Below are positions 13,228-56,745 of a DNA stretch of 64,000 nucleotides, piece by piece (the stretch's first letter is position 1; each line of letters opens with the position of its first letter). A model generated the notes under the pieces. The model saw only the letters and a list, made by a program, of their open reading frames with translations. It was not told where the DNA came from and did not search any database. The stretch is from positions 22,249,279 to 22,313,278 of the forward strand of contig NC_033621.1 of assembly GCF_001540865.1 (NCBI RefSeq), read 5' to 3'. This stretch comes from Ananas comosus. Taxonomy: Eukaryota; Streptophyta; Magnoliopsida; Poales; Bromeliaceae. Both the position numbers and the translations under genes were made by a program.

Positions 13228-13440
13228 TGTCGAATTGTTGGTGTTAACCATTAATCTCAAAAGCTTGAGCTGTTAGAAATACACAACCAATTCATTTTAA
13301 GCATACAAATACTCGCCCATCCGGCCTCACGCCACTTTAAACATGACTCGGCCTACTCAGTCTCACGCCATTTCGAATATGACTCGGCCCAACATGACCT
13401 TCTGTTACAGGACAGAATGCTGGTCTATTTAAGCCAATAG
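13228..13440 (-). mobile_element. Solo LTR of the miniature LTR (TRIM) family
   Basis: Read on the minus strand this matches the LTRs at 53868-54657: TTGGCTTAAATAGACCAGCA at the start, GGCGTGAG twice, TAACAGCTCAAGCTTTTGAG, and an end in ATTCGACA. It is about 213 bp and more diverged than the 53.9-kb copies, with no second LTR or internal region beside it, so probably an old solo LTR. Confidence 0.8.
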
Positions 13441-24659: not shown

Positions 24660-25723
24660 TATTTGTTATTTTTTTCCTTCCAATTTTGCCATGCCTCTAT
24701 GCTCTTAAAATGCTTTCTTGGATTCAGTTAATTAACTTTGAAAAAAAAAAAGTGGATTTCGTTTTAGTTTCCTCAAACAAAAAGCGCCTGAATTTTTTTT
24801 TTTTTTTGAAATCAGATTTATTTGACCACCACTGTTTCGACCGGTTGATTGATACGCCTCCTTCAGATATAATGATTGATTTTTTTTTTTTTTATCTGTT
24901 GTTAGAGTAATTTGTTATGGTGTGTTTTAATCTGGTGTGGAATCATATCCTTTTTAAAAAAATTAAGAAGCAACAAAAAGTTTTTAGAATTTTTCTTTTT
25001 GCTGTCAAATTAATCCTGTGATGAATTAGAGTAATTTGTCATCATCCATTGTAAAAGCACATTGTCATTAATTAGTTTTTTTTTTTTTTTTTTTTCCTTG
25101 CCTCTCTCTTCTGATTTTCAAAGTCAACCAACACCCTTTAAGTTCCTAAAATAAAATAAACCTCTCTGTTTTAATCACAATTCACAAATAGGGTATATCC
25201 CTGTTTACTCAAAAAAAGTTCCTAAAATAAATAAATAATTGTAAATATTGAGTTAAAAACAAAAATTCTTTTATTCATATAACATTTTAATTAAAAGATA
25301 AAAAACGATTTTGCCGCTTTTTCTTTCCTTCTGTTCTTCAAGGTGAGTCAAAGCTCCCTAAATTTGTTTAAAAAAATCATAAAGTTTTAGTGAAAAATAC
25401 CAAAAATTCCAAAATTTATACTGAGTTTGAAAGAAATTTACGTTTAAGTTATTTTTTATTTAGAAATCAGGAAAATTTTAGATGAGGATAGATTTACATT
25501 AAGTGAAAGAACGAAAAATTCGAAAACATGTAATAATAATTTTATAGTGAAAAAAGAAAATTTAATTCTAACAAATAATAACAAACTCTCAGGGATTAAA
25601 AATAATTTAAATTTTTTTAAAAAAAATCTAAGATCAAAAAATAATAACTAAAATTATTCAGAAAATNAAAAAAAAAAACTTTTTTTAAAAAAATATAAAT
25701 CAAAAAAAAAAATTTTAAAAAAT
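24660..25723. other. Gene-free AT-rich stretch
   Basis: Homopolymer A and T runs and one undetermined base at 25667. No gene or repeat ends were resolved. Confidence 0.5.
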
Positions 25724-25808
25724 TCCGACCTGCCGGATTCGAACCAGCGACCTAAGGATTTATCTGCACCACTACAGTCCTCCGCTCTGCCAACTGAGCT
25801 AAGGTCGG
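25724..25808 (-). tRNA. tRNA-Tyr(GUA) with intron
   Basis: On the minus strand CCGACCTTAGCTCAGTTGGC opens the acceptor and D arm, with 5' CCGACC pairing with 3' GGTCGG. The anticodon GTA follows GGACT. A short intron of about 12 nt (TGGTGCAGATA region) interrupts the anticodon loop, as in all plant tRNA-Tyr genes. The B box GGTTCGAATCC is perfect, and the discriminator base (25724) is A. No CCA is encoded, as expected for a nuclear gene. Upstream of the gene on the transcribed strand is AT-rich; a T run downstream (minus strand; plus-strand A run at 25708-25714) would stop Pol III. Confidence 0.95.
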
Positions 25809-41649: not shown

Positions 41650-43029
41650 GCGCGAAGCGGAGGAAGCTTCACATTTACGGATAGTCCCTGTACTGTTCCC
41701 ATATTAGTATTTAGTACTTTCTGAAGTCCCCCTACTTTTTATTTGTTAAACGCCGAACCCTAACCTTTCATTTTATTACAATTCTACCCCGCTTTCTCAA
41801 AAATATTTTTTTCAAAAAAAAAAAGAAGAGCATTTACTTATTATTATTTACTGTGACAACTAATTATTTGTGTTTATAAGAAATAGTATCAATTGTTAAT
41901 TGATGAATAGTTATGAACCGTAGTTACGGTTAAAAGTCAGAAGCCATCCTAGATCTAAAATGAAAAACATGTGGGTAAGTAATTGCCTCAGCATTAAATT
42001 GATTTTTTTTTTTTAGTGGCTTATATAAAGCCTACAACTAACGTTACATTATATAAAACAATCGTTATTTTTCTAAAACTATCATAGAACGGTATTTTAA
42101 ATATTTATATTCAACACTTTTCCTCGTATTTGGACTTCAGATAATTTATAAGATTAAGAAGTGGACTTAAATTAAATAAAAGAAAATTTAACGAGACTAG
42201 AAACCTAGCGGGACTCTAACTCGTGATCTCTTGATCTGATACTAATCATACTATGTTATATAATGTGAAACAACTATTTACTTCGAAAGCTTAAAGTTTT
42301 AAAAAACAACAGCTATTTTATATAATTTAACGTAATACTAAAAAAAAATTCTGAATTCGAGTTCCGCCAGGTATTTTGTCTAATTTAATTTTCTCTTATT
42401 TAATTCAAATTTATGTTTTCAGACTATCATAAAATCTCGAACCCAAACACGATGGAGAATGATGATTATAAATATTTAAAACACCATGTTTTGATAGTTT
42501 AAGTTTATGAAATACATCTTAGAACTTAAGACCTCGAATATCAACCATTAAGCCCTTTACCATTTGCACTAGGAATCGTCAGTATTTGTTGAAACTTATT
42601 CGTTTTCATAATAAAGTATTCTGTCAAATTCCAAAAGCTTTACCACCACAGCACTTATAAGATCAACCAAAACTTTTAAAAATAAGTTCAAATTCACAAA
42701 TTGAAGTTTAAAATGTGTGCATAATTTTCTGCTCTGCAACTACCATGGTTCTCAGAAGAAAAAACAAAACAATTATAAACAAACACAAACTATTTATAAG
42801 CATAATAATGACAATGAAACCACAAAACTTCAATAAGTAAACAACTAAAAGTGTTTAACATTTCCTTTCTTTTACAGCAACTACAAAAAGTCTGATCCCA
42901 AAAGCCAAAACCATGAGAGAACAAAAAGTTCCCTCCCAGCTAAACATTAATACATCATCATACATTCTAAAGGAAAGTCCTTCTGATTAGTATACCAAAA
43001 GGTCCAAAAACAAGCATTAAAGTTAAGCC
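41650..43029. other. Spacer between hydrolase and ROP genes
   Basis: No gene. Holds a SINE fragment (42510-42580, minus) and, near 42205-42260, the text CGGGACTCTAACTCGTGATC...GATACTAATCATA. Inverted, this resembles the ATATCAGAGCAAGAGGTT...GAATCCCGC phrase found beside primer-binding sites. Confidence 0.5.
42510..42580 (-). mobile_element. SINE fragment (5' head part)
   Basis: AACTTAAGACCTCGAATATC, CATTAAGCCCTTTACCATTT and GCACTAGGAATCGTC match the head half of the SINE in minus orientation. Confidence 0.6.
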
Positions 43030-52468: not shown

Positions 52469-53152
52469 TTCAAATACCACTCTTGCAGTTTCACATTTTT
52501 TTCATTTTAGTATCATGTGGTTTAAAGTATAGAGAAAACTTCAAAAATCCTCCCGGTGGTTTCGTAGTTTCTCACTTTGCCCCCCTGTGGTTTTAAATGT
52601 ATCAATTTGCCCCCCTGTGGTTTCGTTTTTATTTTTTCGGCAGCTTTTTCGTTAATATTTCATTAAATTATATACAAAAAAACTTCAGATTCCTATCTAA
52701 ATTTATCAAATATTCACTTTAGTACCCTTTAATTTAACTTTATCACTGATTTAAGAAAAAAGATAATGAAATTGATAAGAAAAAGAGAAAAAAGAAACCA
52801 TAGGAGGGCAAATTGATACATTTTAAACCACAGGGGGACAAAGTCAGAAACTACGAAACCACACGGGAGGTTTTTGAAGTTTTTCCTAAAGTATATCAAG
52901 TTAGTGCCCTGTAGTTTCATTTTTATCTTTTCGTCAGCTTTTCTGTTAATATTTCGTTAAATTATATACAAAAAAATTTCAGATATCCTATATAGGTTTG
53001 TCGAATATTCACTTTAATACCCTTCAGCTTTAACTTTGTTACTGATTTAACGAAAAAAATTAGTGAAATCGAATATTCACTTTAAACTATAGGGTAATAA
53101 AGTAAGAAAGTGTGAAACCACATGAATGGTATTTGAAATATTTTCCACTTTT
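52469..53152. mobile_element. Outer member of a nested pair of 9-bp-TSD elements
   Basis: Starts GTAAACTTCAAATACCACTC and ends GGTATTTGAAATATTTTCC. It is interrupted at 52532-52886 by another member; reading across the gap gives continuous family text (TTTAAAGTATA|TCAAGTTAGTGCCC). Confidence 0.8.
52532..52886. mobile_element. Inner nested MULE-like MITE with perfect 9-bp TSD
   Basis: Ends GAGAAAACTTCAAAAATCC and AGGTTTTTGAAGTTTTTCC. TAAAGTATA at 52523-52531 and 52887-52895 is a perfect 9-bp duplication of host element sequence. 355 bp. Confidence 0.92.
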
Positions 53153-53402: not shown

Positions 53403-53867
53403 AATTCCTCATCTATAATCAATAGAATTTTATGTTTTTTTTTACTTGCTAATCTCCTTGATAGGTGAAAATCATGCGAAACAACATATTGGCCACATAA
53501 ATTTATCAATATATTATTAGCAAACTATAATGTTTTGAAGTGCCTAAAGCATTTATCATTCAGCTTGCAGTGAGAGACATCTTGCTCGAAATAATATTCG
53601 AATCCTAAGTTATGCTAGCAAAAATAAAAAAAAATAAAAAAAAAGAAAAAGAAAAAGAAAAAGAAAAATTGCCTACCCATCTACAGTTTTTGGGGAAAAA
53701 AAAAATAGTGGAGAGCGCTCCAATAACGCTGCGTTAAGAAGACCCCATTCACGATTTTCTATCAGTTTTGTCCTTATTTAAAGATTATAGTTTTCCCTGT
53801 TAGAATTTTTTATTTTAACATCAAAAGATATTCAACGAATTTTTAATTAGAGGCAAAATTAATGCAT

Positions 53868-54657
53868 TGTTGACTTAAATGGGCCAGCATCCTGTCCTGT
53901 GGCGGGAGGCTATGTGGGCCGAGTCATGTTCGAAATGGCGTGAGGCTGGGTTGAGCCGAGTCATGTTCGAAGTGGCGTGAGGCCAGGTGGGCCCAGTCAC
54001 AATCGAGACCCGTGGGCGCTGTTTCTGTACGCTTTAAGTGAATTGGTTGCGTATTTCTAACAGCTCGAGCATTTGGGATTAATGGTTAGCGTCAGCGATC
54101 CGACACATTGTTGGCTTAAATGGGCAAGCATCCTGCCCTGTGGCGGGAGGCCATGTGGGCCGAGTCATGTTCGAAATGGCGTAAGGCTGAGTTGGGTCGA
54201 GTCATTTTGAAGTGGCGTGAGACCAGGTGGGCCGAGTCACAATCGAGACCCGTGGGCGCTGTTTCTGTACGCTTTAAGTGAATTGGTTGCGTATTTCTAA
54301 CAGCTCGAGCTTTTGGGATTAATGGTTAGCGCCAACGATCCGACAAGTGGTATCAGAGCCAGAGGTCACGGGTTCGATTCCTGCATGCTGCAAATGTGTG
54401 CAGGTGCTGTATGGGGGATTGTCGGCTTAAATGGGCCAGCATCCTGCCCTGTGGCGGGAGGCCATGTGGGCCAAGCCATGTTCGAAATGGCATGAGGCTG
54501 GGTTGGGCCGAGTCATGTTCGAAGTAGTATGAGGCCAGGTGGGCCGAGTCACAATCGAGACCCGTGGGCACTGTTTCTGTACGCTTTAAGTGAATTGGTT
54601 GCGTATTTCTAACAGCTCGAGCTTTTGGGATTAATAGTTAGCGCCAACGATCCGACA
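53868..54657 (+). mobile_element. Miniature LTR retrotransposon array (TRIM): LTR-LTR-internal-LTR
   Basis: LTR1 53868-54105 (238 bp), LTR2 54109-54345 (237 bp), LTR3 54420-54657 (238 bp). Each begins TGTTGRC/TGTCGGC and ends CGATCCGACA. Two bases after LTR2 comes TGGTATCAGAGCCAG (54348-54362), complementary to the 3' end of plant initiator tRNA-Met, so a primer-binding site. TATGGGGGAT just before LTR3 is a minimal polypurine tract. The internal region is 74 bp with no coding capacity. The tandem LTRs suggest unequal recombination. The flanks show no clear 5-bp duplication. Confidence 0.88.
54348..54362 (+). other. tRNA-iMet primer-binding site of the TRIM
   Basis: TGGTATCAGAGCCAG; 15 bases complementary to the initiator tRNA-Met 3' end including CCA. 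Confidence 0.85.
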
Positions 54658-54717
54658 GACAGTGAATTCTGAGCTCTCCTGAAAAGTTTTATCTCATGCT
54701 TAATGAATTTTTTATTA

Positions 54718-55082
54718 GGGTCCGTTTGGTTCAAGGCAAAACTATGAAAAATAATTTTTAATGGAAAAATATTTTTGGTGGAAATTTTTTTTTTACATTT
54801 TATAGTGTTTGAATCGTAGGAAAAAAAATAATTTTCTATCAACATTGGTTTAGTTGGAAGGAAAAAAATTTACATTTATTTTATTTGATGGAAAAAAAAT
54901 AAATGAAAAATTTTTACACAGATCGAGTTTTTATTTTCAACCCGCAAAATGGTAGAAAATGAAAGCTTTAATTTTCTTTCAAAAACGTAAAAATAATTTT
55001 ATACGACAAACCAAACGAATAAAAAAATATTTTTTATATAGAAAATAATTTTTCAATCCGTTTTACGCAGAACCAAAAGAGG
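54718..55082. mobile_element. MITE with GGGTCCGTTTGGTTC end
   Basis: Left GGGTCCGTTTGGTTCAAGGC; right GCAGAACCAAAAGAGG inverted. The interior has opposed AAAATAATTTTT blocks. No coding. Confidence 0.7.
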
Positions 55083-55092
55083 AGTATAAAAC

Positions 55093-55450
55093 TAAGGTAA
55101 ACTTCAAATACCACCCATGTGGTTTCGCACTTTCTCACTTTAGTACCCTGTGGTTTAAAGTGTATCAATTTAATGTCCTGTAGTTTTATTTTTCTCTTTT
55201 CGTCAGCTTTTTCGTTAATATTTCGTTAAATTATATACAAAAAAACTTCATATATCCACTTAGGTTTATCTAATATTCACTATAGTACCCTTTAGTTTGA
55301 ACTTTGTCACTGATTTAAGAAAAAAAAAATAATGGAATTAATAATATAAAGCGAAAAATAAAATCACAGGAAACTAAATTAATACACTTTAAACTATAAG
55401 ATATTAAATTAAAAAAGTGCGAAATCATAGGGGTAATATTTAAAGTTTCC
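55093..55450. mobile_element. 9-bp-TSD family, diverged copy
   Basis: Starts GGTAAACTTCAAATACCACC and ends TAATATTTAAAGTTTCC. Interior TTTAGTACCCTGTGGTTTAA matches the family. No clean target duplication found. Confidence 0.65.
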
Positions 55451-56330: not shown

Positions 56331-56745
56331 TGTTGGCTTCAAAGAGTTGTATTCTGTCCTGCGGAGATAGATCAAGTTGGATCAAGTTATTTTCGAAATA
56401 GCAGAAGGTTGAGTTGGATCGTTGCCCGACGTGGCGTGAGGCTGGTTGGACTAAGATACAATCGAGATCCGTGGACGTTGTGTATGTACACTTTAAGTGA
56501 ATTATTTATTCATTTTTAACAGCTTGAGCTCGTTTTTGGGATTAATGATTAGCGTTAACGATACGACAAGTGGTTCCAGAGTCAGAGATCATGGATTCTA
56601 TTCCCGCATACTGTGAATTTATCCAGGCGCTGATCAAGCTGTGTTGAGTCATCTTCGAAGTAGCATAAGGCCAGCTAGGCTGAGTCACAATCAAGATACG
56701 TGGATGTGAATGCTGTGTTTATGCACTTTAAGTAAATTAGTTAAG
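56331..56745 (+). mobile_element. Decayed TRIM copy
   Basis: LTR 56331-56568 is 238 bp like the 54-kb copies, beginning TGTTGGCTTCAAAG and ending ATACGACA. AG then TGGTTCCAGAGTCAGAG is a mutated primer-binding site. The second LTR is only partial (about 56639-56745). Confidence 0.8.

What the first reader, a model, noticed from the sequence alone, without database searches (positions are those of the whole stretch)
53868..54657. An extremely small LTR retrotransposon (TRIM) with a 74-bp internal region, arranged as a three-LTR array
Three 237-238 bp LTRs, a 15-nt tRNA-iMet primer-binding site and a minimal purine tract are all readable, yet only 74 bp separate LTR2 and LTR3. Classical TRIMs have internal domains of roughly 100-300 bp; this is close to the lower limit for a replicating element. 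LTR1 joins LTR2 through only CAT, so the internal domain was lost between them by recombination, or a solo LTR was abutted.
Basis: partly seen in the sequence, partly recalled or inferred. Interest (0 to 1): 0.75.

Follow-up and report, generated by a model that had tools for sequence, protein, structure and literature searches.

The report
Wukong-like miniature retrotransposon (TRIM), three-LTR copy
This is one copy of an ordinary, dispersed family of gene-less miniature retrotransposons in a plant genome (probably pineapple), unusual only because two of its end repeats are joined almost directly to each other.

Summary
In detail: LTR1 53868-54105, CAT, LTR2 54109-54345, a 74-bp internal region with a primer-binding site, LTR3 54420-54657. 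The window's assembly (382 Mb, probably pineapple) has 251 LTR/PBS junctions against 7 for the reversed control. Of 40 stretches fetched first, 34 are plain two-LTR loci; all 34 have a 74-bp gap and 28 an exact 5-bp target duplication. In a second batch 12 of 20 such loci do. The short internal region is thus a family trait. It is no size record: maize Wukong TRIMs have 72-bp (PMC4528315) and 67-bp (PMC8003530) internal regions with 230/232-bp LTRs, similar PBS and purine tract, and multi-LTR arrays. No gag-pol partner was seen in 100 fetched stretches, but the dedicated partner search did not complete. The odd part is the LTR1-CAT-LTR2 junction. One intact counterpart (AGTAT) and one truncated one (AGTGATAT) were found. 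Both intact junction loci lack an outer target duplication and carry only private LTR mutations. They may be fossils of end-joined cDNA, internal deletions, or neighbouring insertions.

The parts
53868..54105 (+). LTR1 (238 bp)
   Evidence: 93-94% to LTR2 and LTR3
54106..54108 (+). CAT, the whole spacer of the LTR1-LTR2 junction
   Evidence: one of two matches of the exact LTR-LTR junction pattern in the assembly
54109..54345 (+). LTR2 (237 bp), 5' LTR of the LTR-internal-LTR unit
54346..54419 (+). 74-bp internal region; same length in 34 of 34 plain two-LTR loci of the first batch and 15 of 20 of the second
54348..54362 (+). primer-binding site TGGTATCAGAGCCAG (initiator-Met tRNA type; the complementarity is recalled, the 12-nt core is quoted as a PBS in PMC7215508)
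   Evidence: LTR/PBS junction counted 251 times in the assembly, control 7
54409..54419 (+). polypurine tract, damaged (GTATGGGGGAT; GGAGGGGGGAT in 24 of 34 plain two-LTR copies)
54420..54657 (+). LTR3 (238 bp), 3' LTR
13228..13439 (-). more diverged solo LTR of the same family, flanked on its own strand by CACAC on both sides
56331..56742 (+). old, decayed LTR-internal-truncated LTR copy of the same family (73% identity over the best stretch)

Best explanation
The locus is a member of a dispersed TRIM family of the host plant. Typical copies are non-coding and 550 bp long: a 238-bp LTR, a 74-bp internal region holding only a primer-binding site and a purine tract, and a 238-bp LTR. They are most likely transcribed from the LTR, reverse-transcribed and integrated by proteins supplied in trans by another LTR retrotransposon, probably Ty1-copia as proposed for Wukong. 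Shown here: dispersed copies, a constant internal length, 5-bp target duplications, solo LTRs, tandem arrays. Inferred: the RNA intermediate, mobilisation in trans, the copia partner. The three-LTR form arose at about the time of insertion: by loss of one internal region from an LTR-int-LTR-int-LTR array, from cDNA whose LTR ends had been joined, or by two insertions of similar age. It did not arise by a late duplication.
For: 251 LTR/PBS junctions with up to 2 mismatches, control 7. The DNA search listed 50 matches, 44 of them spanning about 550 bases or more of the query; only 40 of 1814 candidates were scored. 28 of 34 plain two-LTR loci have exact 5-bp target duplications; 6 of 1122 cross-locus pairs match, five of them within three pairs of loci that share flanks and one between L015 and L038. 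Second batch: 12 of 20 exact, 16 of 20 with at most 1 mismatch, cross-locus 0 of 380, gap 74 bp in 15 of 20. LTR-LTR K2P 0.004-0.081, median 0.036, in the 34 loci. 13 of 100 fetched stretches have a second, sometimes partial, internal-region match, i.e. are array-like. No Pfam family at its curated cut-off in 10 of the 11 open frames of 40 aa or more (the eleventh was not searched). 24 of 24 variable columns of the window's LTRs are private to one LTR (8, 7 and 9).
Against: No autonomous partner was found; the dedicated search did not complete. The window array has no outer target duplication, so its own insertion by integrase is not shown. The first 40 stretches were chosen as best matches to the window, which favours copies built like it. 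No transcript evidence was available.
Confidence: 0.93

Rival explanations
1. The LTR1-CAT-LTR2 junction is a fossil of cDNA whose two LTR ends were joined by non-homologous end joining (2-LTR form) and which entered the chromosome without integrase.
For: Two of the three junction spacers (AGTAT in L110, AGTGATAT in L115) begin with the internal region's first bases (AG...), and all three, the window's CAT included, end with its last two (AT). Both intact junction loci (window, L110) lack an outer target duplication (3 of 5 flanking bases differ in each), against 4 of 54 plain two-LTR loci with 3 or more mismatches (Fisher p 0.0097, post hoc, two cases). All variable LTR columns are private in both loci (8/7/9, 5/5), so the junctions are about as old as the insertions. 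LTR-LTR junctions with short indels are called a hallmark of NHEJ of extrachromosomal linear copies in PMC9324142 (passages seen).
Against: Only two intact cases, found with exact or lightly loosened patterns that miss diverged copies. The same leftovers could result from internal deletion. The window spacer starts with C, not AG, and CAT also precedes LTR1. If the window's LTR2-internal-LTR3 is scored as its own insertion, its flanks (CACAT / GACAG) differ at only 2 of 5 bases, and the contrast with plain loci then rests on L110 alone.
Confidence: 0.32
2. The locus inserted as a tandem array (LTR-int-LTR-int-LTR) and lost its first internal region by a small deletion soon afterwards.
For: Such arrays exist in the family: L029 with target duplication ACTTT, L052. 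[quoted passage not shown] The spacer ends in AT like the internal region.
Against: The deletion would have to stop almost exactly at both LTR ends. No outer target duplication remains. CAT is not a simple remnant of the internal region.
Confidence: 0.33
3. LTR1 is an independent solo LTR, or a [CAT-LTR] tandem duplicate, next to a normal LTR2-internal-LTR3 element.
For: CAT precedes both LTR1 and LTR2. Solo LTRs exist (13228-13439; L114 with TAACA on both sides). Equal ages do not exclude two insertions from one source. The 5 bases on either side of LTR2-internal-LTR3 (CACAT / GACAG) agree at 3 of 5, so a decayed target duplication cannot be excluded.
Against: A late duplication predicts mutations shared by LTR1 and LTR2; 0 of 24 variable columns are shared. 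At most 2 mismatches occur in about 10% of random 5-base pairs, so the partial match is weak.
Confidence: 0.3
4. Satellite-like tandem repeat, not a mobile element.
For: Tandem arrays exist (L029, L032, L040, L052).
Against: 34 of the first 40 stretches are plain two-LTR loci, 28 with exact and mostly different 5-bp duplications, on many contigs.
Confidence: 0.01

Closest known systems
Wukong TRIM of maize (PMC4528315: section 11 part 1 and passages seen; PMC8003530: passage seen)
   Same: 532 bp, 230-bp LTRs, 72-bp internal region (67 bp with 232-bp LTRs in the SAT1 insertion), 5-bp target duplications, PBS ATTGGTATCAGAGCCA and purine tract GAGGGGGAGAT, arrays of 3-7 LTRs, no coding capacity
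   Different: LTR sequences not compared (no Wukong sequence at hand); typical copies here are 550 bp with purine tract GGAGGGGGGAT; a direct LTR-LTR junction was not mentioned in the parts seen
Tandemly arrayed TRIMs, e.g. Zma-SMART (PMC4717578, passages seen)
   Same: more than two LTRs in a row; one target duplication around the whole array, as in L029 and L040
   Different: the arrays described there keep internal regions between LTRs; the window has LTR-CAT-LTR
SMART / FRetro129 of grasses (PMC3281118, passages seen)
   Same: gene-less, 5-bp target duplications, solo LTRs
   Different: 85-bp LTRs, 122-bp internal region, 292 bp in all
Cassandra (PMC7215508, PMC10853983, passages seen)
   Same: TRIM with a TGGTATCAGAGC PBS and tandem arrays; similar total length (563-968 bp)
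   Different: Cassandra LTRs carry a 5S rRNA-like stretch; none was found here

Membership tests
TRIM (criteria of PMC4717578, passage seen) | element shorter than 1,500 bp, without gaps | tested here: met
   550-bp unit, 790-bp array; the window's only N are at 25667, 49651, 59940
[quoted passage not shown]
   28 of 34 and 12 of 20 loci with exact 5-bp duplications; cross-locus matches 6 of 1122 and 0 of 380
TRIM (criteria of PMC4717578, passage seen) | no retrotransposon protein | tested here: met
   10 of the 11 open frames of 40 aa or more of the window array: no Pfam family at its cut-off; one zinc-finger model below cut-off, E 0.027
TRIM | PBS and purine tract next to the LTRs | tested here: met
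   PBS 15-mer exact in 24 of 34 and purine tract GGAGGGGGGAT exact in 24 of 34 plain two-LTR copies; the purine tract is damaged in the window copy
TRIM | mobilised in trans by an autonomous LTR retrotransposon | tested here: inconclusive
   no long coding internal region seen in 100 fetched stretches, 40 of which were chosen as LTR-internal-LTR matches; 251 junctions were counted and 100 listed; the partner pattern search did not complete
Wukong family | sequence similarity (80% over 80% of the length, used for subfamilies in PMC4717578) | not testable with these tools
   no Wukong sequence available; only printed lengths, PBS and purine tract were compared
Cassandra | 5S rRNA-like promoter in the LTR | tested here: not met
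   Rfam scan of 53800-54750 at E up to 5: one sub-threshold lncRNA match (E 4.1), no 5S rRNA

The most novel reading that the evidence does not exclude
Direct LTR-LTR junctions in this TRIM family are chromosomal fossils of end-joined (2-LTR) cDNA that entered the genome without integrase. The family would then record a normally invisible side branch of the retrotransposon cycle, and the spacer bases would show what the cDNA ends look like (AG or AGT at the U5 end, AT at the U3 end).
Probability: 0.28. Interest if true: 0.4.

Novelty: new member of a known kind. Interest (0 to 1): 0.2.

Why it matters
It adds a Wukong-like TRIM family, with a copy estimate, divergence and target duplications, for what is probably the pineapple genome, and shows that a 74-bp internal region is a stable family trait. 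The few direct LTR-LTR junctions could help to ask how tandem LTR structures arise, which PMC11899658 (passages seen) leaves open.

Tried and rejected
Rejected: (1) Satellite repeat. (2) A locus-specific deletion making the 74-bp internal region: the gap is 74 bp in 34 of 34 and 15 of 20 plain two-LTR loci. (3) Cassandra: no 5S match. (4) A tRNA gene in the internal region: GGGTTCGATTCC resembles a B box (recalled), but ARAGORN and Rfam report no tRNA there. (5) Late tandem duplication of LTR1/LTR2: no shared private mutations. The LTR tree sets the three window LTRs apart, but 46 of its 81 inner branches are drawn open and its bootstrap had not settled, so it is weak support. (6) L053 as a gag-pol partner: no 3' LTR match within its stretch, but its ten open frames of 60 aa or more do not exceed 94 aa, so I read it as a truncated copy (no domain search on it). 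(7) Of six hits of the loosened LTR-LTR pattern, two are the known loci, three (L113, L114, L116) are chance matches of flanking bases and one (L115) is a junction between truncated LTRs. Led nowhere: a paper search for 2-LTR circles with end joining (0 papers hold all six terms); the 15-mer PBS in papers (one paper, on endogenous caulimovirids, listing seen only). Mended while checking this report: the purine-tract and B-box coordinates, the make-up of the 6 cross-locus matches, and the CACAT / GACAG near-match. The near-match made me raise the neighbouring-insertion rival from 0.25 to 0.3, lower the end-joining and deletion rivals from 0.35 to 0.32 and 0.33, and lower the novel case from 0.3 to 0.28.

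Full report
Observation. The three LTRs, the CAT spacer, the 74-bp internal region and the PBS are present at the stated coordinates. The LTRs differ from each other at 14, 15 and 17 of 237-238 sites, K2P 0.062-0.076. At 1.3e-8 changes per site and year (a recalled rate) this is about 2.4-2.9 million years. The purine tract of this copy, GTATGGGGGAT, differs at two bases from the GGAGGGGGGAT of 24 of 34 plain two-LTR copies.

Host. The window lies in contig C1 of an assembly of 381,958,007 bases in 3,128 contigs. PMC6022998 (passages seen) gives 382,063,720 bp in 3,380 scaffolds for the pineapple F153 sequence it processed. That the host is pineapple is my inference.

Mobile family. The 790-bp query listed 50 matches in the assembly, 44 of them spanning about 550 bases or more of the query, with only 40 of 1,814 candidates scored. 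The 24-base LTR/PBS junction occurs 251 times with at most 2 mismatches, against 7 for the reversed control; 100 places were listed, 74 of them exact. I fetched 40 stretches covering the 50 matches, the window locus included, and 60 more from the junction list: the 52 stretches holding exact junctions not yet fetched, and 8 with one mismatch. In the first 40, 34 loci have two LTRs. In all 34 the gap is 74 bp, and 28 have exact 5-bp target duplications; 3 have one mismatch, 1 two, 2 four. 6 of 1,122 cross-locus pairs match: five within three pairs of loci sharing flanks (L013/L014, L020/L033, L034/L038), one between L015 and L038. Independent insertions are therefore somewhat fewer than 34. The other six loci of that batch have three or more LTR matches: L029 and L040 have exact duplications, L041 one mismatch, and L032, L044 and the window locus (L048) three or more. 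In the second batch 20 of 60 loci have exactly two full LTRs; 12 have exact duplications, 4 one mismatch, 2 two, 2 three or more, and 15 of 20 have a 74-bp gap (the others 46, 68, 71, 72 and 119 bp). The remaining 40 of that batch did not pass the filter of exactly two full LTRs, being truncated, rearranged or array-like. The first batch was chosen by similarity to the window, so its uniformity is partly selected; the second was chosen by the LTR/PBS junction only. The median LTR-LTR K2P of the 34 loci is 0.036, range 0.004-0.081; the lowest value belongs to L015, an array-like locus without a duplication.

Arrays. 13 of the 100 stretches have a second internal-region match, some of them partial: L015, L029, L032, L040, L044 and L050, L052, L055, L056, L074, L079, L093, L101. 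This is a lower bound, because most stretches of the first batch carried only about 100-bp flanks. L029 is a clean LTR-int-LTR-int-LTR with ACTTT on both sides.

The LTR1-LTR2 junction. The exact junction pattern occurs twice in the assembly: the window (CAT) and C5:9513049 (AGTAT, L110), control 0. A loosened pattern gave 6 hits, control 0: these two, three chance flanks, and one junction of truncated LTRs (AGTGATAT, L115). More diverged junctions would be missed, so the count is a lower bound. In the window all 24 variable columns are private to one LTR (8 in LTR1, 7 in LTR2, 9 in LTR3). In L110 all 10 are private, 5 and 5. Ordinary two-LTR loci share only 0-3 rare variants between their own LTRs, so the pattern argues against a late duplication but does not tell one insertion from two of similar age. 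Neither junction locus has an outer target duplication: TGCAT / GACAG in the window and GTTTT / GGGAT in L110, 3 mismatches of 5 in each. 4 of 54 plain two-LTR loci have 3 or more mismatches (Fisher p 0.0097; post hoc, two cases). Against this, the 5 bases beside LTR2-internal-LTR3 taken alone (CACAT / GACAG) differ at only 2, as they do in 3 of those 54 loci, while about 10% of random pairs would do as well. The spacers in L110 and L115 start with the first bases of the internal region, and all three spacers end with AT, its last two bases; 32 of 34 plain copies end their internal region in AT and 33 of 34 start it with AG. End joining of cDNA ends and internal deletion both explain this. PMC9324142 (passages seen) describes LTR-LTR junctions with short indels as products of non-homologous end joining of extrachromosomal linear copies.

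Partner. No gag-pol element was identified. None of the 100 fetched stretches showed a long coding internal region, but the first 40 were chosen as LTR-internal-LTR matches and could hardly reveal one, and I ran no protein-domain search on them. L081 and L098 stop inside the 3' LTR. L053 has no 3' LTR match in its stretch, but its open frames do not exceed 94 aa. The dedicated pattern search did not complete.

Comparison with what is known. TRIMs of this size and build are published. Wukong in maize is 532 bp with 230-bp LTRs and a 72-bp internal region, and 15 of 89 intact elements have three to seven LTRs (PMC4528315, section 11 part 1 of 2). A Wukong copy in SAT1 has 232-bp LTRs, a 67-bp internal region, PBS ATTGGTATCAGAGCCA and PPT GAGGGGGAGAT (PMC8003530, passage). 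Helenus-1_SMo has an 85-bp internal region (PMC10886601, passage). Tandemly arrayed TRIMs were found in 35 of 43 genomes (PMC4717578, passage). Neither 'pineapple' nor 'Ananas' occurs in the main text of PMC4717578. A search for pineapple TRIMs (54 papers, 15 listed) brought the pineapple LTR study PMC6022998; in the passages seen this family was not named. That does not show that it is undescribed.

Verdict. A Wukong-like TRIM family, well supported and ordinary. The direct LTR-LTR junction is the part worth a follow-up.

Noticed in passing
window 42208-42242 (-): A decayed PBS-like stretch matches bases 4-38 of a query starting one base inside the internal region at 80% identity, in a different context; the PBS-adjacent sequence may be shared by other LTR elements.
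   Followed up: partly
window 23538: Another exact TGGTATCAGAGC in a different sequence context, possibly the remnant of an unrelated LTR retrotransposon.
   Followed up: no
window 54370-54381 and the same place in 20 of 34 plain two-LTR copies: GGGTTCGATTCC in the internal region matches a tRNA B-box consensus (recalled); it is exact in 20 of 34 copies. No tRNA is predicted there.
   Followed up: partly
window 52530-53137 and 55099-55448: A repeat with inverted copies of itself lies on both sides of the array and recurs near 18.8-19.4, 32.6-33.1, 48.2-48.7 and 50.2-50.5 kb; it looks like a MITE-type family.
   Followed up: no
L040 (G000:C20:7903520-7906921): Array of about five LTRs with ACCCC on both sides; the LTR ends at its inner LTR/internal junctions read CTAAAA or CCAAAA instead of CCGACA, which suggests spread of a mutation within the array.
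   Followed up: no
window 25724-25808 (-): tRNA-Leu gene.
   Followed up: no
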